Source: Catenulispora acidiphila DSM 44928 (GTDB lineage Bacteria > Actinomycetota > Actinomycetes > Streptomycetales > Catenulisporaceae). Taken from it: 64,000 nucleotides of DNA. The stretch lies in contig NC_013131.1 in the NCBI RefSeq assembly GCF_000024025.1, positions 248,001 to 312,000 on the forward strand, given 5' to 3'. Of this stretch, positions 4,889 through 15,476 are shown piece by piece (the stretch's first letter is position 1; each line of letters starts with the position of its first letter). Under the pieces are notes generated by a model. It ran no database searches. It was not told the DNA's origin and saw only the letters and a program-made list of their open reading frames with translations. Made by a program: the position numbers and the translations under genes.

Positions 4889-7201
4889 ATGCGGCCCGAA
4901 TGGGACAGGTACGCCCAACGTCTCAAAGCCTTGCGGAGCGAACAGGGGCTGAGCCAGCGGCGTCTGGCGCGGGCTCTACATGTGGACCATAGCGTGATCT
5001 CGCGTGCGGAGAGTGCCGTCCGTCGTCCCGATCCCGACCTCGCGGCCTCGATCGACCTGCTGCTGAGCACGGGTGGCGAGTTGCAGCGGTTGGCTCGGGA
5101 CGCGGTGCGAAAGCAGGCGTCGGCCGACTCACTATCGACGCGTGGGGGTCCTTCTGGTGCGGTCCCGCGGTTGCGATCGTCTATACCGCCCGACTCCGTG
5201 CACTTCACTGGTAGGAACGCGGAGTTTGACCAGGTGCGATCAGAGCTCGTCGAACGGCCCGACGCGGTCGGCGCCGCGAGCGTCTGCGTGATCAGCGCGC
5301 TGGCCGGTGTGGGCAAGACAGCGCTCGCCATCCACAGCGCGCACCGCCTCGCCGGCCGTTTTCCGGACGGATGTCTGTTCCTCGATCTGCGTGGCTTCAC
5401 TCCCGGACACGCGCCGCTGAGCAGCTTCGAGGCGCTGGGAGCTCTGCTCGCCTTGCTGGATGTCCCGGTCGCCACCATCCACAGCACCGAGCCGGCGCGC
5501 TCGGCGCAGTTCCAGGCGGAGACCGCCGGCGCGCGGCTGCTGCTGGTGCTAGACAACGCCGCTGACGCACATCAGGTACGACTGCTCTTGCCATCGGCGC
5601 CTGGCTGCCGGGTATTGGTGACGAGCCGGAACCGCCTTGTGGCCCTTGACGAGGCCGTGCATCTCGACCTGCGGCCCCTTGCCGAGGTTGATGCCGCCGC
5701 GCTGTTCCGCATGGTGTCGGCCGGCGGTCGTGTCTCGCAGAGCACTGTCGACGGTATCGTCGCGCGCTGTGCCGGCGTCCCATTGGCGTTGCGGATCGCG
5801 GCGGCACGCTGCGCTCCCGGCGGCGCGTTCGATCCGGAACTGCTCGCCGCCGAGCTGTCGCGCGCGGAGGACTTCATCGGGCAGCTGGACGACGGGGAAC
5901 GCAGCGTGCGTGCGGTGTTCGATGCCTCGTTCTCCTTGCTGCCCCGAGAGCTGCGGCAGGTGCTTGCTCTGCTCGGCACCCGTCTGCTGACCGTCTTCGA
6001 CATTTGGGACGTCGCAATGCTCGCCGACCTCCCGCTCCTCGGCGCGGCTGGCGCGTTGGAACGGCTGCACGCGGCGAGTCTGCTTGAAGTGCGCGGCACT
6101 GATCGTTTCGTCCTGCACGATCTGGTCGCCGAGTACGCGATATCCGCCGCCGGACAGACGCTCGGCGCCGAGCAGCTGCGGGCCGCAATCGGACGCTTGC
6201 TCGACGCCTATCTGCGCGTCTGTGACAGGGCCGACTCACAGGTCACGCCGCATCGGCACCGCTTCCCGCTCGCGGTGGCGGCAGCCGGAGCTGTGCCAGA
6301 CCCGGACTTCAGTGACTACTACGAGGCCCTCGACTGGCAGACCAAGCATCTCGACACGGCCGCGGCGCTGTGCGAAACCGCCTACGAGCACGGTTTCGAC
6401 GAACAGTGCTGGCAACTCGCCTACGCGCTGCGCGGGGTCTTCTTCCTCACCAAGCACTGGGAGCAGTGGGATCGTATCCAGCGCATCGCGCTGGCGGCGA
6501 CAAGACGGCTCCAAGACCCGCACGCCGAGTGCGTGACTCTGAACAACCTCGGCCTCATCCTCGGTGAACGGGGCGAGACCGACGCCGCGCACCGCTGCCT
6601 CAACGAGGCCGAAAGCGTGTGCCGCGCCGCCCGTGATCGCTTCGGCGAGAACACCGCACGCGCCCACAGGGCCTGGCTCTTCCACACGGCCGGACGGCAT
6701 GGCGAGTCCCTGACCGAGCACGAGGGCGTCCTCGAGTTCTACACGCAGATCGACAGCCCTCGCAATGTGGCCATCGTGATGCGCGACATGGCCGCATCCG
6801 AAGCCGCTCTAGGCCACACCGACAGTGCCCTCGCGCACTTGCACGCGGCCGAGCAGGCCTTTCGCAAATTGGATCTGACGATGGACCTGGCCATGGCCCT
6901 GAACGACCTCGGCGAGACCTACACAGCGATCATCGACCCGAAACGCGCCGCCGAGTACTTCGAAGCAGCGCTGGCAGCCTGCGCGGAGTCCGGCAGCGAT
7001 CATGAACGGGCTCGAGCGCACGCCGGCCTCGGCGCCCTGGCGGAGTCCGCAGGCCGGCAGAACTGGGCGAACGCACACTACCTTCAGGCCCTGAGGCTGT
7101 TCGATGCGCTCGGCGCTCCGGCGGCGGACGTGGTGCGCGCTCGGCTGCACGCGTCGACTGTCATGTTCCCGACCACCGCTGAGGAGGACGAGAACCGCTG
7201 A
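4889..7201 (+). CDS. XRE-NB-ARC-TPR STAND regulator
   Basis: The start is ATG 4889, directly behind a GA/G-rich Shine-Dalgarno stretch (agaggggggag); an in-frame ATG at 4862 has no such site. Residues 8-55 are an XRE helix-turn-helix (LSQRRLARALHVDHSVISRAE). Residues 105-400 are an NB-ARC ATPase: Walker A AGVGKT at about 139-144, kinase-2 RLLLVLDNAAD, sensor VLVTSRNR and GLPL CAGVPLALRIAAARC. A winged helix and about 300 residues of TPR repeats follow. The product is 770 residues. The layout is that of SARP-less AfsR-like STAND proteins, in which an ATPase switch couples ligand sensing by the TPRs to DNA binding. It is a paralogue of the gene truncated at position 1. It converges on the minus-strand TIR-STAND gene 66 bp downstream. 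The ligand and target genes are unknown. Confidence 0.9.
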   Translation: MRPEWDRYAQRLKALRSEQGLSQRRLARALHVDHSVISRAESAVRRPDPDLAASIDLLLSTGGELQRLARDAVRKQASADSLSTRGGPSGAVPRLRSSIPPDSVHFTGRNAEFDQVRSELVERPDAVGAASVCVISALAGVGKTALAIHSAHRLAGRFPDGCLFLDLRGFTPGHAPLSSFEALGALLALLDVPVATIHSTEPARSAQFQAETAGARLLLVLDNAADAHQVRLLLPSAPGCRVLVTSRNRLVALDEAVHLDLRPLAEVDAAALFRMVSAGGRVSQSTVDGIVARCAGVPLALRIAAARCAPGGAFDPELLAAELSRAEDFIGQLDDGERSVRAVFDASFSLLPRELRQVLALLGTRLLTVFDIWDVAMLADLPLLGAAGALERLHAASLLEVRGTDRFVLHDLVAEYAISAAGQTLGAEQLRAAIGRLLDAYLRVCDRADSQVTPHRHRFPLAVAAAGAVPDPDFSDYYEALDWQTKHLDTAAALCETAYEHGFDEQCWQLAYALRGVFFLTKHWEQWDRIQRIALAATRRLQDPHAECVTLNNLGLILGERGETDAAHRCLNEAESVCRAARDRFGENTARAHRAWLFHTAGRHGESLTEHEGVLEFYTQIDSPRNVAIVMRDMAASEAALGHTDSALAHLHAAEQAFRKLDLTMDLAMALNDLGETYTAIIDPKRAAEYFEAALAACAESGSDHERARAHAGLGALAESAGRQNWANAHYLQALRLFDALGAPAADVVRARLHASTVMFPTTAEEDENR

Positions 7202-7267
7202 TGCCCGCGACGTTCCACCACGCACCGAAAGACGAGGATCTGCGCGGGTCGGTTTCGCATGACGAGT

Positions 7268-10165
7268 TCAGTCGTCGAACGCCAGCCGTTCTGCCCAGTC
7301 GATGAGTCGGTCCACCACGGCCAGGTCCGCTTCGGGGCAACCGAGCACGACCCGCATGCCTTCGGCGGCGTCGCGCAGCACGTTCAGACCGTCATCGATC
7401 TGACTGTCCAGCTGGCCCAGGCAGACGGTCGCGTGGCCGAGACACGTCTCGGCGAAGAGAGTCTCGGGGTGGTCTGTGCCGAACTCCGCGACCAGTGCTC
7501 CGTGCAGGTACGAAGCGAGTTCGAAGTCCTCGACACGCTCGTCGGTCGTTTCGTCGTCGAGTCGGACCGCGACCTCCGTCCAATCACCAGGAGGTTCTTG
7601 AACCGGCTCCGAGAAGACACGGTTCACGGAGTCTGATGGAGGGTTGGCGGTGGATACGTGGACGCTCCGCAGGTTGATGATCAGGTTCCGCAGGGTGCGA
7701 CGGGCGGCAGGAGAGCCGGGATCGGCGTGGGTGACACGCTTGCGATACACGGCGCGGAGTTCAGCAGTCCGGGCCTCAGGGTCCGCGCAAACGGCGGCGA
7801 ACTCGAGAGCGCTGAGAGCGTCGGGGTGAGAAGGTCCGTAGATGGCTCTGCGCACGTCGTAGGCCTCCTGGAACAATGCGCGCGCGGCGGCCGAATTCCC
7901 CGCTCGATAATGGCTGACGGCGAGCGAGCTGATCGCGTCGGCGAGCTGCGGGTCATCAGGCCTCAGATACCGCCGACTCGCCGCAACGACCCTCGTCCTG
8001 AGACGCAACGCCAGACTCTCGTGTCCATCAAGCTCGCGAGCCGTCGCGTACGCGTTCAACGAAGCGAGCGTCGCGGGGTGCGAAGGCCCGCGGCGCTTGA
8101 GATGGGTGGCATAGATCTGCCGGTGGAGTACTCGGGCCTTCGCATAGTCGCCGAGCTCGCCGAATGTGACAGCCACGTTGTTCAGGGCGGTCAGCGTCGC
8201 TTCCTCATCCGCGCCCTCGACGCGCGCGAGCACCTCATAGGCACGCGTCTTGAAGTCCAGTGCGAGCTCGTGCTGACCTAGCAGGCCGTAGGCGACGCCG
8301 AGACCCACCAGCCCTGCCTGCGTGGCGAAATCGTCCTCGCCGAGTGACTCCCGGCACGCCTGATAGAGCCGCTCGAACATCGCCAGCGCGGCCCGCTCGT
8401 CGCCGAGGCCGACCTGGACGCGTCCCGCCTCGTTCAGCAGGCTCTGCTGGGCCACGTCGGTCGCGCCACCGGCGACGGCACGCACGTGCGGCAAATAGTC
8501 CACGATGCCGTCCCGCCCGCGCTCGAGAATCTCCCCGAGCGCCTCGACGGACCTGGCCCGCAGCTGCTCACGGTCGCCGCTGCCGAACCGGTCGCGGAAC
8601 CGCACCGCACGGCTCACCAGTGAATGCACGCTCCACAAGGTCCCGAACGTGCCTACCGTCACCGTGGCCAACGCCAGTGCGGCGCACTCTCGAAGCGCGT
8701 CGTCAACCGTCATCCCCGGACGTGTGCTGTCGAGCCGCCGACTGTCGCCGAGTACGCTGTCGAACATCGCCGCAGGAACGGGTGCGGCCGCAAGAATGCT
8801 TGCCAGCAGCAATACCTCATATGCCGCCGACGAAAGCCTCGCCAGCGACCGCATCATCGCCGCCGCCACACTGCCTTGATGGTCCGTGGCGATCTCGTGC
8901 TCCCGCGCCGCCGCCCACTCGAGTGCGTCGCGATCGGGGTCGGCCAGTTCTGTGCGAACCTGGTCGAGCTCAGCTGTCCCGTTATTGTCCAGTGTTCGGG
9001 CGACCAGCGCGACCGCCATGGCGTGGTGACCGAGATCGGCCGCAAGCCGACGCGCCGAAGCGATCGTCGCCCGATCAGCCCTCGCGCCGGCGCCTCCCAG
9101 CAAAATCCTCACCGCCGCAGACTCGCCGAGTGGCCCCAGCTCGACTGTCTCGCCGACGAATCCACGATGCGCGTGGCGTGATGTGACAAGCGTGCGCCCG
9201 CGAGCCGTCGGAGCGAGGAACTCGCGAACACCGATCGGCCCGACATGATCCGGCAGATCGTCGACGATCCAAAGGTAGTCCTGGTCGGCCCTCTCCAGGT
9301 GGTCCCGAATCACCGACCGCGCCGAGCGATCAGCCGAACGTCCTTCGACCTCGGCCGGCACCCCCGGCAACTCCTCGGCGATCCGTGCCAGCTGCTGTTC
9401 GAGCGCTGTCCTGAGCAAGGCAGGTGAGCTGTTCGCATTTCGGTGACTACCGAATCCCCGCAGAACGAAGACCCCACCAGGATGGTCCGCTGCGAACCAT
9501 CGCGCGTACTGCTCGGCAAGCATCGTCTTGCCCTGGCCACCCATGCCCACGATGCGCGCCAGCCGCTGCCCCGGCTGTGCCGCGTCATCCCGTCCGGCCA
9601 ACGCGTCGTGCAGATCCCACAGCTCTGTCGCACGGCCGTGAAAGGCAGGTTCCGCGACGGTCGGAAACGGATACCAATTCGGCGGCCCAGGCTCAGAGGC
9701 GATCCCGAACGGCCTGTCGTCGATCTCCTCCAATCGCTCTGCGACCACCGCGGCGAGTGCATCCGGGCCGGTGGAACGCGCGGGAAGTCGCTTGTCCTGC
9801 AGCGCCCGCGGCCGAACGGCTTCGTAGGGCAGCTCCCTGACAACGGGGAGGATTCGGCGCACGTCGCCGTCGAGGCGATACGCCGCGGTCATCGCGTGAG
9901 CGAGTTCCAGCCGGCAGTATGCGCTCTCCGGGAACTGGGGCGTATAGAGCGCCACAAAACTGCGAGATCCAGCGAGCGCGGCGAACACTTCCGTGCCGAT
10001 GTCGTCGAAGTCCCGCATGCCGGTCTCGTCGCGGAAGACCTGCAAACGTCGCGCCTCCAAGGCTGCGACGAGTATCAACGCCTCGGCCAAGTTCTTCCAC
10101 GAGTAACTGAAGAAGACGTCGTATACGGCTTCGTTCTCGCCGCCGTCCCGCACCGGCGCTGTCAT
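7268..10165 (-). CDS. TIR-NB-ARC-TPR STAND protein (965 aa)
   Basis: The start is ATG 10165, which overlaps the stop of the upstream XRE gene (ATGA) and so implies coupling; the frame stays open 43 codons further upstream, but those overlap that gene. Residues 14-100 form a TIR domain (YDVFFSYSWKN, then FRDETGMRDFDDI, then YCRLEL) with the putative catalytic Glu at about 87. Residues 165-500 are an NB-ARC domain: P-loop GMGGQGKT (207-214), kinase-2 YLWIVDDLP and sensor TLVTSRHA. Residues 600-965 are TPR repeats of kinesin-light-chain type (GPSHPATLASLNAYA, GPSHPDALSALEFA). It matches the broken gene at 1492-4387 domain for domain. TIR-STAND proteins often act as NADases triggered by ligand binding to the repeats; activity here is inferred. 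It is a candidate antiviral or stress sensor. Confidence 0.9.
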   Translation of the reverse strand: MTAPVRDGGENEAVYDVFFSYSWKNLAEALILVAALEARRLQVFRDETGMRDFDDIGTEVFAALAGSRSFVALYTPQFPESAYCRLELAHAMTAAYRLDGDVRRILPVVRELPYEAVRPRALQDKRLPARSTGPDALAAVVAERLEEIDDRPFGIASEPGPPNWYPFPTVAEPAFHGRATELWDLHDALAGRDDAAQPGQRLARIVGMGGQGKTMLAEQYARWFAADHPGGVFVLRGFGSHRNANSSPALLRTALEQQLARIAEELPGVPAEVEGRSADRSARSVIRDHLERADQDYLWIVDDLPDHVGPIGVREFLAPTARGRTLVTSRHAHRGFVGETVELGPLGESAAVRILLGGAGARADRATIASARRLAADLGHHAMAVALVARTLDNNGTAELDQVRTELADPDRDALEWAAAREHEIATDHQGSVAAAMMRSLARLSSAAYEVLLLASILAAAPVPAAMFDSVLGDSRRLDSTRPGMTVDDALRECAALALATVTVGTFGTLWSVHSLVSRAVRFRDRFGSGDREQLRARSVEALGEILERGRDGIVDYLPHVRAVAGGATDVAQQSLLNEAGRVQVGLGDERAALAMFERLYQACRESLGEDDFATQAGLVGLGVAYGLLGQHELALDFKTRAYEVLARVEGADEEATLTALNNVAVTFGELGDYAKARVLHRQIYATHLKRRGPSHPATLASLNAYATARELDGHESLALRLRTRVVAASRRYLRPDDPQLADAISSLAVSHYRAGNSAAARALFQEAYDVRRAIYGPSHPDALSALEFAAVCADPEARTAELRAVYRKRVTHADPGSPAARRTLRNLIINLRSVHVSTANPPSDSVNRVFSEPVQEPPGDWTEVAVRLDDETTDERVEDFELASYLHGALVAEFGTDHPETLFAETCLGHATVCLGQLDSQIDDGLNVLRDAAEGMRVVLGCPEADLAVVDRLIDWAERLAFDD

Positions 10166-11667
10166 GAGAGCGACGCCTCCTGATCGGCCTCCAGCAGCCG
10201 CTTGAAACGCCGTAGCGGGCCAGAGCGAGGCGTCCGGGTGGGGAGCTCTGCCGCATGCCGAGACGTGTGCCCGAGCCACGTCAACGACCGCCAAGCCAGC
10301 CGCACCTGGTCATCGACAAGCCCGTCGGGAATCTGAGGACGCAGCGGATCCAAGGCACCACTGGGACGACGGCACCGGATCGTGAGATCCTCTCGGCCCC
10401 GTTCGGCCGAGATAGTCTCCGCCCGGGCACGCAGGGCCTCCTCAATGTGGTCGAACCCTGCTTCGATTTGCTTCCGCAACGCCAACGCGGTCGACTTGTA
10501 CTCGCGTTCGCACGACAAGCCGATTTGCCGTTCCGTCCACCAGTCCAGAACAGCCTCATGCGGCCGCGCGTAGACGATCCTGGCCGGCGTGCGGCGTAGC
10601 TGCTCCAACGCACCGTGGTCCGGCGAGCCGTCCGGCGTGAGAAACGAATGGGGACGTGCCGCGAGCACCGCGGGCCAGGGCCTGCCCGCCGCATGCGACC
10701 GGCCCACGTGCTCCGCCACCTCCCGCCACGCCTCGGCCGGACCGCTGAGCCAGTCCCGCCTCGTGGCGACCACCTGCCCGCTCCGGTCGATGACCGTGCC
10801 GGAGTGCACGAGCACGAACTGCCATCCGAGCGCCCCGGCAAGCATCGCGGCAGCCATACTCGAGCTGTACCGGCCGCCGATCAGGACCAGCGGACGCTGA
10901 TCCCGGCAGCTCCAGCCATCGGCCGCGGCTTCGGTGGACCGGCCGCTCACGATGTCCTGCACGAGGATCTGCGCGGGCCACCGGTCGGCGGCAGGACGCC
11001 ATGTCTGCGAACCGGCGTCACCCTGCCAGCTGTACTGCCCGAACCAGCGCAGCGGCTCGGCTACGAACGCGGCCAGTTCCAAACGCACCGCACAGTAATC
11101 CGGGTGGCGCCGCAGCATCGCGGCGCTCGGCGACGGCACGATGCGAGCCATCCCGGCCAGCCGCTCCACGTCAGCCAACGCTGGTACAGCGGCGCCCGGT
11201 ATCAACAGGAACTGCGCCGCGACGTCGGTGGTGAGTGGATAGCTTCCGTGTGACTCCAGTGCCAGCAACCGAACGGCATACCGCGCCCGCATGGTCTCGT
11301 CATGAAGCAGCGCGTGGACCGCGGCTTCGGGCGCGTACATCTGGTCACCGCCGCCACCGGCGCCACTTCGACCTGGATCGACGTCGGACTCGTCGAGCCA
11401 GCCCGCGTCGACGAACGCCTCAATCGGACTGACTCCCGCAAACCGGGCCAAGTCCCGCACCCGATCCGGACCCGGATTGCGCCGTCCGCTGAACCATGAA
11501 CGTACCGTCTCCGCGCTGACCCCGAAGTACCGCGCGACGGCGGCTTGGGTCAGCTCCCTGCCGGTCGACCGTAGATGGCCGTCGGTGATCCGCCGCATCA
11601 TCCGCTCGATCTGGTCCGCGCGCGGTACGGAGCCCGCGGGGCGCTCCTGCGGGTCGAGGCCGGCCAT
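10162..11667 (-). CDS. XRE-family protein (501 aa) coupled to TIR-STAND gene
   Basis: The start is ATG 11667, preceded by a good GGAGGT Shine-Dalgarno; an in-frame start at 11781 has none. Residues about 38-85 form a helix-turn-helix (TQAAVARYFGVSAETVRSWFSGRRNPG). The remaining 400 residues match no family I can name. They include a Rossmann-like stretch, PLVLIGGRYSSSMAAAMLAG, then WQFVLVHSGTVID, followed by a basic helical tail. The stop overlaps the ATG of the TIR-NB-ARC-TPR gene, so the two proteins are probably made together. The protein could be a repressor of the pair or a DNA-bound partner of the sensor. The function of the large C-terminal region is unknown. The 234-bp gap to the oxygenase gene at 11902 is a shared divergent promoter region with a weak TTGGG/CCCAA inverted repeat at 11687-11705. 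Confidence 0.85.
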   Translation of the reverse strand: MAGLDPQERPAGSVPRADQIERMMRRITDGHLRSTGRELTQAAVARYFGVSAETVRSWFSGRRNPGPDRVRDLARFAGVSPIEAFVDAGWLDESDVDPGRSGAGGGGDQMYAPEAAVHALLHDETMRARYAVRLLALESHGSYPLTTDVAAQFLLIPGAAVPALADVERLAGMARIVPSPSAAMLRRHPDYCAVRLELAAFVAEPLRWFGQYSWQGDAGSQTWRPAADRWPAQILVQDIVSGRSTEAAADGWSCRDQRPLVLIGGRYSSSMAAAMLAGALGWQFVLVHSGTVIDRSGQVVATRRDWLSGPAEAWREVAEHVGRSHAAGRPWPAVLAARPHSFLTPDGSPDHGALEQLRRTPARIVYARPHEAVLDWWTERQIGLSCEREYKSTALALRKQIEAGFDHIEEALRARAETISAERGREDLTIRCRRPSGALDPLRPQIPDGLVDDQVRLAWRSLTWLGHTSRHAAELPTRTPRSGPLRRFKRLLEADQEASLS

Positions 11668-11901
11668 GGGACCTCCGGTACAGAAGTTGGGAATCCGGTA
11701 CCCAATCTCGGTCGCCGGATGGTCGCTGGAACATTCCGCGAAGCGAGAATCGGAGCGAGTGAGAATCCTGGTTCGCCTCACGATATCCGGCCACGGGGAC
11801 TGGCTGAAGCGGTAGGAGAGCCGGACGACGGCTCGGCACGGCGCACTGGCGGGTGAGGGGAGCGGCCAGTGCGTCTCCGCTTCGCGAAATCGGGAGAAGA
11901 C

Positions 11902-12978
11902 ATGAAGAACCTGTCTGCGTATGAAGTGTATGAATCGCCGAAGACCAGCGGAGAGTCACGTACCGAAGCCGTTTCGGAGGCCGCCTTCGAATCCGACCCC
12001 GAAGTGAGCGCAATCCTAGTCCTGACCTCCTCCGAAGCCTCGACGCTGGAGCGCGTCGCCGACCTCGTGACCGCGCACGCGCTGTATGCCGCTCACGATT
12101 TCTGTGCCCAGGCCCAGCTGGCCGCCGCCGAACTGCCGTCGCGGGTCGTTGCCCGGTTGCAGGAGTTCGCCTGGGGCGACATGAACGAGGGCCACCTTCT
12201 GATAAAAGGCCTGCCGCAGGTCCGCTCCCTGCCACCGACACCGACGTCCAACGTGCACGCCGTCGCCGCGACGACGCCGATGTCGCGCTACCAGGCCCTC
12301 ATCAATGAGTGCGTGGGGCGCATGATTGCCTACGAGGCCGAGGGGCACGGCCACACCTTCCAGGACATGGTCCCGAGCGCCATGAGCGCGCACTCGCAGA
12401 CCAGTCTCGGCTCGGCGGTTGAGCTCGAACTGCACACCGAGCAGGCCTTCAGTCCGCTGCGTCCGGACTTCGTCAGCCTGGCCTGTCTTCGCGGCGATCC
12501 ACGAGCCCTGACTTACCTGTTCTCGGCCCGGCAACTGGTCGCGACGCTGACGACACAGGAAATCGCCATGCTGCGCGAGCCCATGTGGACCACCACCGTC
12601 GACGAGTCCTTCCTGGCGGAGGGGCGTACGTTCCTGCTCGGCTTCGAGCGCGGTCCGATCCCGATATTGAGCGGTGCCGACGACGATCCGTTCATCGTCT
12701 TCGACCAGGATCTGATGCGGGGGATCTCGGCGCCCGCGCAGGAACTCCAACAGACTGTGATCCGCGCCTACTATGCCGAGCGCGTCAGCCACTGCCTCGC
12801 ACCCGGTGAGATGCTCCTCATCGACAACCGGCGCGCCGTCCACGGCAGGTCGATCTTCGCCCCGCGTTTCGACGGCGCTGACCGGTTCCTTTCCAGAAGC
12901 TTCATCGTGGCCGACGGATCGCGCAGTCGGCACGCGCGTTCTTCCTTCGGCCGCGTCGTCTCTGCGAGGTTCAGCTGA
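11902..12978 (+). CDS. Fe(II)/2-oxoglutarate oxygenase, clavaminate synthase/AsnO/VioC-like
   Basis: The preferred start is ATG 11902, preceded by GGGAGAAG; an in-frame ATG at 11869 would add 11 residues. The facial triad is visible as LHTEQAF (His178, Glu180) and AVHGR (His314), with the 2-oxoglutarate-binding Arg at about 328 (DRFLSRSF). This spacing and the following PLRPDFVSLACLRGDP closely resemble AsnO and VioC, which hydroxylate free L-asparagine and L-arginine at C-beta. The expected reaction is hydroxylation or desaturation of a free amino acid with O2 and 2-oxoglutarate; the substrate cannot be read from sequence. TGATG overlap with the next gene implies coupled translation with an AlaX-like editing protein. 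There is no adjacent NRPS. It is divergent from the XRE/TIR-STAND operon. Confidence 0.85.
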   Translation: MKNLSAYEVYESPKTSGESRTEAVSEAAFESDPEVSAILVLTSSEASTLERVADLVTAHALYAAHDFCAQAQLAAAELPSRVVARLQEFAWGDMNEGHLLIKGLPQVRSLPPTPTSNVHAVAATTPMSRYQALINECVGRMIAYEAEGHGHTFQDMVPSAMSAHSQTSLGSAVELELHTEQAFSPLRPDFVSLACLRGDPRALTYLFSARQLVATLTTQEIAMLREPMWTTTVDESFLAEGRTFLLGFERGPIPILSGADDDPFIVFDQDLMRGISAPAQELQQTVIRAYYAERVSHCLAPGEMLLIDNRRAVHGRSIFAPRFDGADRFLSRSFIVADGSRSRHARSSFGRVVSARFS

Positions 12979-13880
12979 TGAGCGACTCGTTCTGCTCTAC
13001 TGTCGTCACATTTCCTGAGGGCGCGATCGAAGCCTCGTCGACGATCGTTCACATCCAGCGTGTCCTCGGTCTGGACCCGAAGGCGACGCACTGGGCCGTC
13101 TTCACGGAGGCGACACCGTTTCATCCGGTCGACCCCACATGGCCGGACCAACCGGGGGACACCGGGGTGTTGCTGACCGACGTCGGCGAGCTGCCGGTCA
13201 CCGGATGCGTGACCGCTGCGGTCGCCCGGGCGGGAGGCGAGCTTCTCGTGGACGCGGAGATCACTGCGAAGCGCGGCGATCCTGAGTACGCCTGGCTCGT
13301 CTGCCATCTCGTGGCCGACAGGGCTGGGGACCTGCCCGGCCGGCTCGTCGGCACGGCGGCGAAACTGCTGGTTGATCGGAGGCGGCGGCGTCGGCTCAGC
13401 GTCGCGCACACTGCGTGCCACCTGACAGGTCTCGCGCTGAATGTGAACCTTGCCGATCGGTGGCGCAAGCCGATCAGAACCGACGGTCTCGGACGTCCCG
13501 ACTTCGACGGCGTGGCGATCGTGTCGTCCCGGATCGCCGAGGACGGCGCCATGGACACCTACCGGTTGGGCACGTCGTTGCGGAAGGCGGGCTTCGTCAG
13601 CGAGGGGTTCGCGGACGGTGTGTCGGCGCTGCAATCGGCTATCGAAACATCCGTAGCGGAGTGGGTAAGACAGGCTGGACAGATCACCGTTCTGACAAAA
13701 GGGTCGGCACTGCACGACCGTCGCACGTGGGAATGCGTCCTTCAGGAGGGAACCGCGCGCACGTCCTGCGGAGGAACCCATCCGCAGAACACCGGCGAAC
13801 TGGGCTCTGTGACTGTGCGGTGCGCCTTCGACCCGGATACCAAGCTTCTCACCGTCGCTACGACGGTTGTGCCGTCGTGA
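12978..13880 (+). CDS. AlaX-like aminoacyl-tRNA editing-domain protein
   Basis: The ATG at 12978 overlaps the oxygenase stop (TGATG). Residues 35-75 resemble the barrel segment of alanyl-tRNA synthetase editing proteins (FHP, then QPGDTGVLL). The zinc site of the AlaX/ThrRS second additional domain is complete: HTACH (His144, His148) and CGGTH (Cys264, His268). AlaX proteins hydrolyse mischarged tRNA such as Ser-tRNA(Ala) in trans. There is no aminoacylation domain, so this is a freestanding deacylase, 300 residues long. Pairing with a free-amino-acid oxygenase suggests removal of a hydroxylated amino acid from tRNA, or a biosynthetic step on an aminoacyl substrate. Both ideas are inference. 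Its GTGA overlap with the next gene makes a three-gene coupled unit. Confidence 0.8.
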   Translation: MSDSFCSTVVTFPEGAIEASSTIVHIQRVLGLDPKATHWAVFTEATPFHPVDPTWPDQPGDTGVLLTDVGELPVTGCVTAAVARAGGELLVDAEITAKRGDPEYAWLVCHLVADRAGDLPGRLVGTAAKLLVDRRRRRRLSVAHTACHLTGLALNVNLADRWRKPIRTDGLGRPDFDGVAIVSSRIAEDGAMDTYRLGTSLRKAGFVSEGFADGVSALQSAIETSVAEWVRQAGQITVLTKGSALHDRRTWECVLQEGTARTSCGGTHPQNTGELGSVTVRCAFDPDTKLLTVATTVVPS

Positions 13881-14500
13881 ACATCGTATTTCCGCCGGTG
13901 GCGCGTGCGCGTGTGTGCTTGGCTACGTGGCAGCAGTTCTACGAGGATCCGTTCCGTCCGCTTGAGGATTTGCTTGCTGATACGTGCGCCACTCTGCTGT
14001 CGGCCCAGAATCGGGGCGACCGGCCGGCGATGAGGGAGACGGTCGTGGGCTGGCGGGATCGGTTGGAGCGGGCCTTGCAGGAACGCGAGGACGTCATGGC
14101 CGGTCTGGATCCGCTGGTCCGGAAGCATGCGTTCGCGAGCTGGCCCACGGCTTTGACCGTGCTTCGCGTCTCTGCGGCCGCGGCTGACGCGAACCCCAAC
14201 GAGCCCCCCTTCTGGTCGCCGCCGAATGCAGAGTCGGTACTCGTCGACGTTGGTGCGGGAATCACAGCGTTCGAGGTCGGGATCCGCGCGGACAATTGTC
14301 GACGGCGGTCCGCGGCGTTGGCGTGGTGGCGTTGTGCGGCGGCCACCGGGCATGCACGCGCCGCGTTCGAGCTTGGCCAGGAGGCGCGGATACGGTGCGA
14401 TATCGACGGCGCGATGATGTGGTTGCGACAGGCGTCGGACAGCGGGTATGAAGCGGCTGGAAAGCTGATTGCGGCGCTCGGTGGGTCGTCAAGACTCTGA
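13877..14500 (+). CDS. Sel1-repeat protein
   Basis: The GTG at 13877 overlaps the previous stop (GTGA), which fixes the start although the frame is open much further upstream. The product is 207 residues. The N-terminal 130 residues are helical and unrecognised. Residues about 140-200 contain Sel1-like repeats (ALAWWRCAAATGHARAAFELG and MMWLRQASDSGYEAAGKL), helical hairpins that mediate protein contacts. It is the last gene of the oxygenase/AlaX unit and may be an adaptor. Its link to the chemistry of the first two genes is inferred only from the overlaps. Confidence 0.75.
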   Translation: MNIVFPPVARARVCLATWQQFYEDPFRPLEDLLADTCATLLSAQNRGDRPAMRETVVGWRDRLERALQEREDVMAGLDPLVRKHAFASWPTALTVLRVSAAAADANPNEPPFWSPPNAESVLVDVGAGITAFEVGIRADNCRRRSAALAWWRCAAATGHARAAFELGQEARIRCDIDGAMMWLRQASDSGYEAAGKLIAALGGSSRL

Positions 14501-15369: not shown

Positions 15370-15391
15370 ACAGGTCATAACCTGCTGACAG

Positions 15392-15476
15392 CGGAGGATG
15401 TGGGATTCGAACCCACGGTGGCTCGCGCCACTTTGGTTTTCAAGACCAACGCCTTCGGCCGCTAGGCAAATCCTCC
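15392..15476 (-). tRNA. tRNA-Ser(UGA)
   Basis: Read on the minus strand, a 7-bp acceptor stem (GGAGGAT with ATCCTCC) and discriminator G enclose a D arm (GCCTAGCGGCC). The anticodon arm is TTGGT-CTTGAAA-ACCAA, giving anticodon TGA. A long class II variable arm and a T arm with GGTTCGAATCC follow. The CCA is not encoded. The 3' end points toward the accessory island on the left, the usual geometry for integration at tRNA genes. Confidence 0.95.

What the first reader, a model, noticed from the sequence alone, without database searches (positions are those of the whole stretch)
11902..14500. Amino-acid oxygenase fused by overlap to an AlaX-like deacylase and a Sel1 protein
Three genes overlap by one to four bases each: an AsnO/VioC-like oxygenase with a complete HxE-H-R set, an AlaX-like protein with HTACH/CGGTH zinc ligands, and a Sel1 protein. 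AsnO/VioC enzymes hydroxylate free amino acids, and AlaX hydrolyses mischarged tRNA. An organism that makes a hydroxylated amino acid would need to keep it off tRNA. The pair could be production plus self-protection, a tRNA-linked modification, or a conflict weapon. No NRPS is adjacent. The motifs are seen; the linkage is inference.
Basis: partly seen in the sequence, partly recalled or inferred. Interest (0 to 1): 0.75.

Follow-up and report, generated by a model that had tools for sequence, protein, structure and literature searches.

The report
Lysine hydroxylase paired with tRNA-editing protein
A bacterium carries, in one operon, a known enzyme that turns lysine into 3-hydroxylysine and a protein built like the enzymes that strip wrong amino acids off tRNA; relatives of the second protein sit in several unrelated gene clusters that make unusual amino acids, so it probably keeps the unusual amino acid out of the cell's own proteins.

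Summary
Three genes overlap (1 and 4 bp). The oxygenase is 100% identical to crystallised KDO1 (PDB 6f2a), L-lysine 3-hydroxylase of Catenulispora acidiphila, so its product, (3S)-3-hydroxy-L-lysine, is known. The second protein is a divergent AlaX: a profile of its relatives matches AlaX-M 2e1b (E 2.8e-12), the AlphaFold model (pLDDT 95) matches 2e1b (TM 0.81), and both zinc motifs are present. The 'Sel1' label is weak.

The pairing recurs. Actinacidiphila paucisporea carries the same three-gene operon. A hydrazine-type cluster in Streptosporangiaceae carries a KDO-like oxygenase with this AlaX. Relatives also sit in a diaminopropionate/NRPS cluster (Streptomyces fuscichromogenes) and an NRPS cluster in Azospirillum. 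The tree needs at least three separate changes of context. Elsewhere the family is a lone gene; the host's own lone copy adjoins a D-aminoacyl-tRNA deacylase.

Best reading: production plus self-protection, with the AlaX clearing 3-hydroxylysyl-tRNA(Lys). FthB, the fluorothreonyl-tRNA deacylase, is the functional precedent, but is described as ProXp-ST1-related, so from a different editing family. Against: similar hydroxylases in Microbacteriaceae occur in genomes without this AlaX, other hosts make 3-hydroxylysine without it, and nothing was assayed. New variant of a known kind.

The parts
11902..12978 (+). KDO1, Fe(II)/alpha-ketoglutarate-dependent L-lysine 3-hydroxylase (clavaminate synthase-like family)
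   Evidence: 100% identical over 358 aa to PDB 6f2a/6f2b/6f2e/6f6j 'L-lysine 3-hydroxylase'; activity and structure in PMC6224419
12433..12441 (+). H178-T-E180, two of the three Fe(II) ligands of KDO1
   Evidence: sequence; PMC6224419
12841..12843 (+). H314, third Fe(II) ligand
   Evidence: sequence; PMC6224419
12883..12885 (+). R328, alpha-ketoglutarate carboxylate anchor
   Evidence: sequence; PMC6224419
12978..13880 (+). AlaX-like protein of the 'WPDQ' subfamily, predicted aminoacyl-tRNA deacylase
   Evidence: family profile matches AlaX-M 2e1b at E 2.8e-12; AF2 model pLDDT 95.1, Foldseek to 2e1b TMt 0.81 and AlaRS editing region E 4.1e-13
13113..13154 (+). TPFHPVDPTWPDQP, subfamily motif occupying the position of the Gly-rich FYPxGGGQ motif of canonical AlaX-M/AlaRS
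   Evidence: alignments
13407..13421 (+). HTACH, first zinc-ligand pair (H144, H148)
13767..13781 (+). CGGTH, second zinc-ligand pair (C264, H268), invariant in the 40-row alignment
13877..14500 (+). third operon gene, helical, possibly Sel1/TPR-like; function unknown
   Evidence: 42% identical to the third gene of the A. paucisporea operon; Pfam Sel1 E 0.069 only; low-confidence model

Best explanation
The operon makes (3S)-3-hydroxy-L-lysine from free lysine (shown by others for this exact protein) and protects the cell from it. Inferred steps: the single class II lysyl-tRNA synthetase of the host charges some 3-hydroxylysine onto tRNA(Lys); the AlaX-like protein hydrolyses the resulting 3-hydroxylysyl-tRNA(Lys) with a zinc-centred AlaX-type site, so that the hydroxy amino acid does not enter proteins. 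A plausible basis for discrimination is the hydroxyl on C-beta: AlaX enzymes normally remove serine, which differs from alanine by just that group, and KDO1 puts a hydroxyl on that same carbon. The third gene is an unexplained accessory. What the 3-hydroxylysine is used for (export as an antimetabolite, or feeding a remote assembly line) is not known.
For: Oxygenase identity and product (PMC6224419). AlaX membership by profile and fold with zinc motifs conserved. Overlapping operon, conserved as the same three genes in Actinacidiphila paucisporea (55%, 46% and 42% identity). A KDO-like oxygenase lies with the AlaX in a hydrazine-type cluster of Microbispora, Sphaerisporangium and Streptosporangium. 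About 0.06 oxygenases would be expected within 10 kb of 100 AlaX loci by chance, 7 genomes seen (rough estimate). AlaX relatives also sit in a SbnA/SbnB diaminopropionate NRPS cluster and an Azospirillum NRPS cluster. The tree gives at least three forced changes between lone and cluster contexts. All 14 family genomes searched carry the lone copy; only this genome has the extra one. The lone copy of Catenulispora is divergent from a D-aminoacyl-tRNA deacylase gene. One class II LysRS, no class I. FthB is an established functional precedent (PMC7408626, PMC11295145).
Against: No deacylase activity is known to me for any member of this AlaX subfamily. KDO1-like enzymes (42-46% identity) in five Microbacteriaceae genomes have no member of the subfamily anywhere in the genome, and stand alone in the three neighbourhoods read; a fused KDO copy in one Streptosporangiaceae genome has no AlaX beside it. 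Pseudomonas taiwanensis and E. coli express 3-hydroxylases without this AlaX (PMC12930750, PMC9288024), although the first seems to metabolise the product and the second is whole-cell catalysis. No exporter or product-forming gene is in the operon. Whether LysRS charges 3-hydroxylysine is not known from anything found here.
Confidence: 0.58

Rival explanations
1. The AlaX-like protein is a biosynthetic hydrolase: it acts on a small-molecule ester, carrier-bound or tRNA-bound intermediate of the pathway, not as a guard of translation.
For: In the hydrazine and NRPS clusters it lies inside the operon among tailoring genes; some members are annotated 'metal-dependent hydrolase'. One cluster member has lost a zinc histidine (HTGCE in L090), which allows a changed activity.
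Against: The KDO1 operon has no carrier protein, ligase or aminoacyl-tRNA-dependent transferase beside it. The clusters share no chemistry except unusual amino acids. The whole two-domain AlaX-M architecture is kept, and the lone Catenulispora copy neighbours a D-aminoacyl-tRNA deacylase.
Confidence: 0.17
2. General quality control: the protein clears an ordinary mischarged tRNA (for example Ser- or Gly-tRNA(Ala)), and its place beside oxygenases and clusters is incidental or only serves co-expression.
For: Most members are lone genes in ordinary contexts (IspG, BipA, CynX-type transporter, Yip1-like neighbours).
Against: The host already has AlaRS, a canonical AlaX and the lone subfamily copy; a further copy, in a conserved operon with a lysine hydroxylase, and relatives in several clusters, are not explained. 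P0002 is on its own long branch, away from the lone copy.
Confidence: 0.13
3. Conflict element: the oxygenase and AlaX form a toxin/antitoxin- or weapon-like pair, in keeping with the surrounding TIR, STAND and TPR genes.
For: TIR/TPR and NB-ARC/TPR genes lie upstream, and in A. paucisporea a CHAT-domain gene lies upstream.
Against: The oxygenase has a defined free-amino-acid substrate; no toxin-like domain was found in the operon; such STAND/TPR genes are common in actinomycetes (own knowledge); the hydrazine and NRPS cluster contexts are biosynthetic.
Confidence: 0.05
4. Lysine catabolism or lysine-pool control: hydroxylation is the first step of using lysine, and the AlaX is a safety valve only in some species.
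For: Solo KDO1-like genes in Microbacteriaceae, one next to GntR, amino-acid-type ABC transport and a dehydrogenase-like gene (read from sequence); Pseudomonas appears to metabolise 3-hydroxylysine (PMC12930750).
Against: No catabolic gene was recognised next to the window operon or its A. paucisporea counterpart.
Confidence: 0.07

Closest known systems
KDO1 / CaciKDO, L-lysine 3-hydroxylase of Catenulispora acidiphila (PDB 6f2a; PMC6224419)
   Same: Identical protein; Fe(II)/alpha-KG enzyme on free L-lysine giving (3S)-3-hydroxy-L-lysine.
   Different: Nothing in the protein. The genomic context was not mentioned in the text searched of PMC6224419 (no 'tRNA', 'genomic context' or 'biological role').
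AlaX-M trans-editing enzyme (Pyrococcus horikoshii, PDB 2e1b; P. furiosus 9iuw)
   Same: Two-domain fold, HxxxH and CxGTH zinc motifs, similar order of elements.
   Different: 300 aa instead of 216; the Gly-rich FYPxGGGQ motif is replaced by FHPxDxTWPDQP; 17% identity in the structural alignment; not recognised at cut-off by Pfam or NCBIfam. Substrate unknown.
FthB, fluorothreonyl-tRNA deacylase of Streptomyces cattleya
   Same: Trans-acting tRNA deacylase placed in a cluster that makes an unusual amino acid, protecting the producer (PMC7408626, PMC11295145).
   Different: FthB is described as ProXp-ST1-related, i.e. a different editing family; it acts on a threonine analogue, not a lysine analogue.
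Cupin/MetRS-like hydrazine synthetase clusters (reviewed in PMC11705231)
   Same: The Streptosporangiaceae clusters that hold the KDO-like/AlaX pair have a Lys/Orn N-monooxygenase, a small cupin-like gene, a MetRS-like enzyme and a FAD amino-acid oxidase.
   Different: They add a KDO-like oxygenase, two ATP-grasp genes and the AlaX; the product is unknown. The window operon has none of the hydrazine genes.

Membership tests
L-lysine 3-hydroxylase (KDO1, clavaminate synthase-like family) | Sequence identity with the characterised enzyme | tested here: met
   358/358 residues identical to PDB 6f2a
L-lysine 3-hydroxylase (KDO1, clavaminate synthase-like family) | Fe ligands H178/E180/H314, alpha-KG residues T204/R328, lysine pocket S168/D234/S236/D268/R332 | tested here: met
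   Residues present; also in A. paucisporea and hydrazine-cluster enzymes. They are equally present in homologues without AlaX, so they do not predict pairing.
AlaX / AlaRS editing-domain superfamily | Sequence homology to AlaX by profile | tested here: met
   hmmsearch of 40-row family profile: 2e1b E 2.8e-12, 9iuw E 5e-9; single-sequence phmmer finds nothing
AlaX / AlaRS editing-domain superfamily | Fold | tested here: met
   AF2 pLDDT 95.1, pTM 0.92; Foldseek 2e1b E 2.9e-11, TMt 0.81
AlaX / AlaRS editing-domain superfamily | Zinc ligands HxxxH and CxxxH | tested here: met
   H144/H148/C264/H268, aligned to 2e1b motifs; H144, C264, H268 invariant and H148 at least 90% in 40 members
Canonical AlaXp (Ser/Gly-tRNA(Ala) deacylase) | Gly-rich FYPxGGGQ motif of AlaX-M | tested here: not met
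   Replaced by FHPVDPTWPDQP, whereas the host's canonical AlaX keeps it; P0002 is not filed as canonical AlaXp
Canonical AlaXp (Ser/Gly-tRNA(Ala) deacylase) | Hydrolysis of Ser- or Gly-tRNA(Ala) | not testable with these tools
   Needs a biochemical assay
FthB-type self-protection deacylase (function) | tRNA deacylase gene linked to the gene(s) making the unusual amino acid | tested here: met
   Overlapping operon, recurrence in another genus and in other clusters; 'deacylase' itself rests on fold and motifs
FthB-type self-protection deacylase (function) | Selective hydrolysis of the unusual aminoacyl-tRNA and protection in vivo | not testable with these tools
   Needs assay and deletion
Sel1 repeat proteins | Sel1 repeats above the family cut-off | tested here: not met
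   Pfam Sel1 14.2 vs 30.7 bits, E 0.069; model all-helical but low confidence

The most novel reading that the evidence does not exclude
The 'WPDQ' AlaX subfamily is a general reserve of tRNA deacylases that bacteria have repeatedly recruited into clusters making amino acids with a hetero-atom on C-beta (3-hydroxylysine, 2,3-diaminopropionate and others). Its AlaX-type site would read the beta substituent, regardless of which tRNA carries it, and its presence would mark clusters making translationally toxic amino acids.
Probability: 0.3. Interest if true: 0.78.

Novelty: new variant of a known kind. Interest (0 to 1): 0.62.

Why it matters
KDO1 is a well-used biocatalyst whose role in its own host has no stated explanation in the papers read here. 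The operon offers one and makes it testable. More generally, if an AlaX-fold deacylase guards producers of unusual amino acids, the FthB principle is not a one-off but has evolved in a second editing family. The gene would then be a search handle for clusters making translation-poisoning amino acids, and a tool for making such amino acids in other hosts or keeping them out of proteins in code-expansion work.

Tried and rejected
Single-sequence searches of P0002 against PDB and Pfam at cut-off did not establish AlaX; profile and fold searches did. 'AsnO/VioC-like' was replaced by KDO1. An orthologous operon in other Catenulispora genomes was looked for and not found. The idea that P0002 is a recent duplicate of the host's lone copy was rejected by the tree (its join with A. 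paucisporea involves two long branches, so synteny is the better argument). Conserved pocket residues were considered as a predictor of AlaX pairing and rejected. A CGGTH string near another oxygenase (L065) was a wrong-frame chance match. Two Streptomyces AlaX loci (L198, L199) turned out not to be in recognisable clusters. The tRNA-Ser gene downstream was considered as a link to serine mischarging, with no support. Literature searches for AlaX in biosynthetic clusters found no report in the held library. The McMurry and Chang paper is not held.
Full report
WHAT IS THERE. The window is bases 248001-312000 of a single-contig genome of 10,467,782 bases; the identity of the oxygenase with the KDO1 structure assigned to Catenulispora acidiphila and the genome size (own recollection) point to C. 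acidiphila DSM 44928. On the + strand lie three genes: 11902-12978, 12978-13880 and 13877-14500, overlapping by 1 bp (TGATG) and 4 bp (GTGA). They are separate genes, not a fusion.

GENE 1. The protein is identical over all 358 residues to PDB 6f2a/6f2b/6f2e/6f6j, 'L-lysine 3-hydroxylase'. PMC6224419 reports KDO1 from Catenulispora acidiphila, its Fe ligands (H178, E180, H314), alpha-ketoglutarate residues (T204, R328), lysine pocket (S168, D234, S236, D268, R332) and its product, (3S)-3-hydroxy-L-lysine. All those residues are in the window protein.

GENE 2. Pfam's tRNA_SAD is sub-threshold (17.9 against 24 bits) and single-sequence PDB search finds nothing. A 40-member family profile finds AlaX-M of Pyrococcus (2e1b, E 2.8e-12; 9iuw, E 5e-9) and the editing part of AlaRS, with HTACH and CGGTH aligned to the zinc motifs of AlaX. 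The AlphaFold model has pLDDT 95.1 and pTM 0.92; Foldseek's best solved structures are AlaRS (E 4.1e-13) and AlaX-M 2e1b (E 2.9e-11, TM 0.81 over the target). The protein is therefore a member of the AlaX/AlaRS-editing superfamily. It is not a canonical AlaXp: the Gly-rich FYPxGGGQ segment is replaced by FHPxDxTWPDQP, conserved through the subfamily. The host also has AlaRS, a canonical AlaX (L003) and a second copy of the subfamily.

GENE 3. Sel1 is only a weak suggestion (E 0.069, below cut-off). The model from two sequences is all-helical but poor (pLDDT 58). It is 42% identical to the third gene of the A. paucisporea operon, so it belongs to the operon; its role is unknown.

THE PAIRING RECURS. 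(a) Actinacidiphila paucisporea (L084) has the same three genes in the same order, 55%, 46% and 42% identical. (b) In Microbispora (L044, L132, L156), Sphaerisporangium (L140, L119) and Streptosporangium (L089) a KDO-like oxygenase with an N-terminal extension lies next to or within about 6 kb of an AlaX of this subfamily, in a cluster with two ATP-grasp genes (one with an L-amino-acid-ligase C domain), a Lys/Orn N-monooxygenase, a small cupin-like gene, a FAD amino-acid oxidase, a MetRS-like protein and a transporter. This is the gene kit of cupin/MetRS hydrazine synthesis (PMC11705231); the product is unknown. (c) In Streptomyces fuscichromogenes (L090) the AlaX gene overlaps, on both sides, genes of an NRPS cluster with SbnA and SbnB above their NCBIfam cut-offs, the makers of 2,3-diaminopropionate. 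(d) In Azospirillum argentinense plasmid p5 (L227) it lies between an aminotransferase and an adenylation-domain gene of an NRPS cluster that also has an Asp/Asn-hydroxylase-domain protein. (e) In Sciscionella (L117) it lies about 3 kb from a Lys/Orn N-monooxygenase and an NRPS-like gene; this case is weaker.

IS IT MORE THAN CHANCE? Oxygenases of this family occur at about 64 places in 395 genomes of the class. At an assumed mean genome of 6 Mb, about 0.06 would be expected within 10 kb of 100 AlaX loci; seven genomes were seen. This is a rough estimate, and the seven fall into few lineages. In the class sample the two best oxygenase hits after the query itself are both AlaX-paired.

EVOLUTION. 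In a 111-row tree, cluster copies need four changes of context, at least three forced by well-supported branches. P0002 joins L084 (100/92), far from the host's own lone copy, which belongs to a clade with all other Catenulispora. The P0002-L084 join involves two long branches, but shared three-gene order supports it independently. The AlaX of Sphaerisporangium album falls with the lone copies of its family, so the same hydrazine-type cluster seems to have recruited an AlaX twice. All 14 genomes of the family carry the lone copy; only this genome carries P0002, and no orthologue of KDO1 was found in its genus (best 38% identity). The operon is therefore an accessory, probably horizontally acquired, unit.

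THE LONE COPIES. Most members are single genes beside IspG, BipA, an acyl-CoA dehydrogenase, a CynX-type transporter or a Yip1-like membrane gene. In Catenulispora the lone copy is divergent from a D-aminoacyl-tRNA deacylase gene (Pfam Tyr_Deacylase E 2.3e-45), which hints at tRNA quality control.

HOW IT MOST LIKELY WORKS. Shown: lysine to 3-hydroxylysine (literature, same protein); AlaX fold and metal site (this work, prediction). Inferred: the only LysRS, a class II enzyme, charges some 3-hydroxylysine; the AlaX-like protein removes it from tRNA(Lys). AlaX enzymes natively distinguish serine from alanine, that is, a hydroxyl on C-beta (PMC11295145 for Ser-tRNA(Ala) hydrolysis; a serine complex, 1wnu, is among the structural matches), and KDO1 adds a hydroxyl on C-beta. 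That correspondence is attractive but untested. FthB gives the functional precedent (PMC7408626), but FthB is described as ProXp-ST1-related, so this would be the same strategy in another editing family.

AGAINST. Five Microbacteriaceae genomes have a KDO1-like enzyme (42-46% identity; pocket residues kept in the three checked) and no member of this AlaX subfamily; the enzyme stands alone in the three neighbourhoods read. A second fused KDO copy in one Streptosporangiaceae genome has no AlaX beside it. Pseudomonas taiwanensis grows with KDO1 expressed, though it seems to consume 3-hydroxylysine (PMC12930750), and E. coli whole cells with a lysine 3-hydroxylase make large amounts (PMC9288024). 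So 3-hydroxylysine production does not always need this protein. One cluster member has lost a zinc histidine (L090). No activity of the subfamily is known to me.

VERDICT. The self-protection reading is the best supported (0.58) and much strengthened by recurrence, but enzymatic proof is lacking. New variant of a known kind; interest 0.62.

Noticed in passing
L132:8198-18993 (Microbispora triticiradicis), also L044, L156, L140, L119, L089: Apparently uncharacterised hydrazine-type biosynthetic cluster with a KDO-like oxygenase bearing an N-terminal extension, AlaX, two ATP-grasp genes, Lys/Orn N-monooxygenase, cupin-like gene, FAD oxidase, MetRS-like gene, transporter and, in the Microbispora loci, a SARP-type regulator.
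   Followed up: partly
L090:213-12618 (Streptomyces fuscichromogenes): NRPS cluster with SbnA/SbnB diaminopropionate genes and a LysA-type decarboxylase, with an AlaX gene overlapping both neighbours; this AlaX has HTGCE in place of HTACH, so one zinc ligand is changed.
   Followed up: partly
L227:2353-13961 (Azospirillum argentinense plasmid p5): NRPS cluster on a conjugative plasmid with Asp/Asn-hydroxylase-domain protein, class III aminotransferase with carrier domain, AlaX-family protein, adenylation domain, AurF-like diiron oxygenase.
   Followed up: partly
L036:9414-10280 and L036:10346-10771 (own genome, 1334000-1353500): The lone AlaX-subfamily copy of Catenulispora is divergent from a D-aminoacyl-tRNA deacylase gene; seen in three Catenulispora genomes.
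   Followed up: yes
L240, L243, L244: KDO1-like lysine hydroxylase homologues in Microbacteriaceae stand alone among ordinary genes, in genomes without the AlaX subfamily; in L243 the neighbours include GntR-like and amino-acid-type ABC transport genes, possibly catabolic.
   Followed up: partly
L232:9356-11113: A fused KDO-like oxygenase in a polyketide synthase cluster beside an aminotransferase-like gene, with no AlaX.
   Followed up: no
window 4889-11781: An NB-ARC/TPR regulator, a TIR/TPR protein (FxSxx-type TPR relative) and a long HTH protein lie upstream of the operon; the HTH gene is divergent from KDO1.
   Followed up: no
window 15391-15476 (-): tRNA-Ser (anticodon UGA) about 0.9 kb downstream of the operon.
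   Followed up: no
L225 (Vibrio alginolyticus plasmid pL29) and L229 (Aeromonas caviae): The AlaX 'WPDQ' subfamily also occurs in Gammaproteobacteria; in Aeromonas it is beside an Nramp-like transporter gene and not in a recognisable cluster.
   Followed up: no
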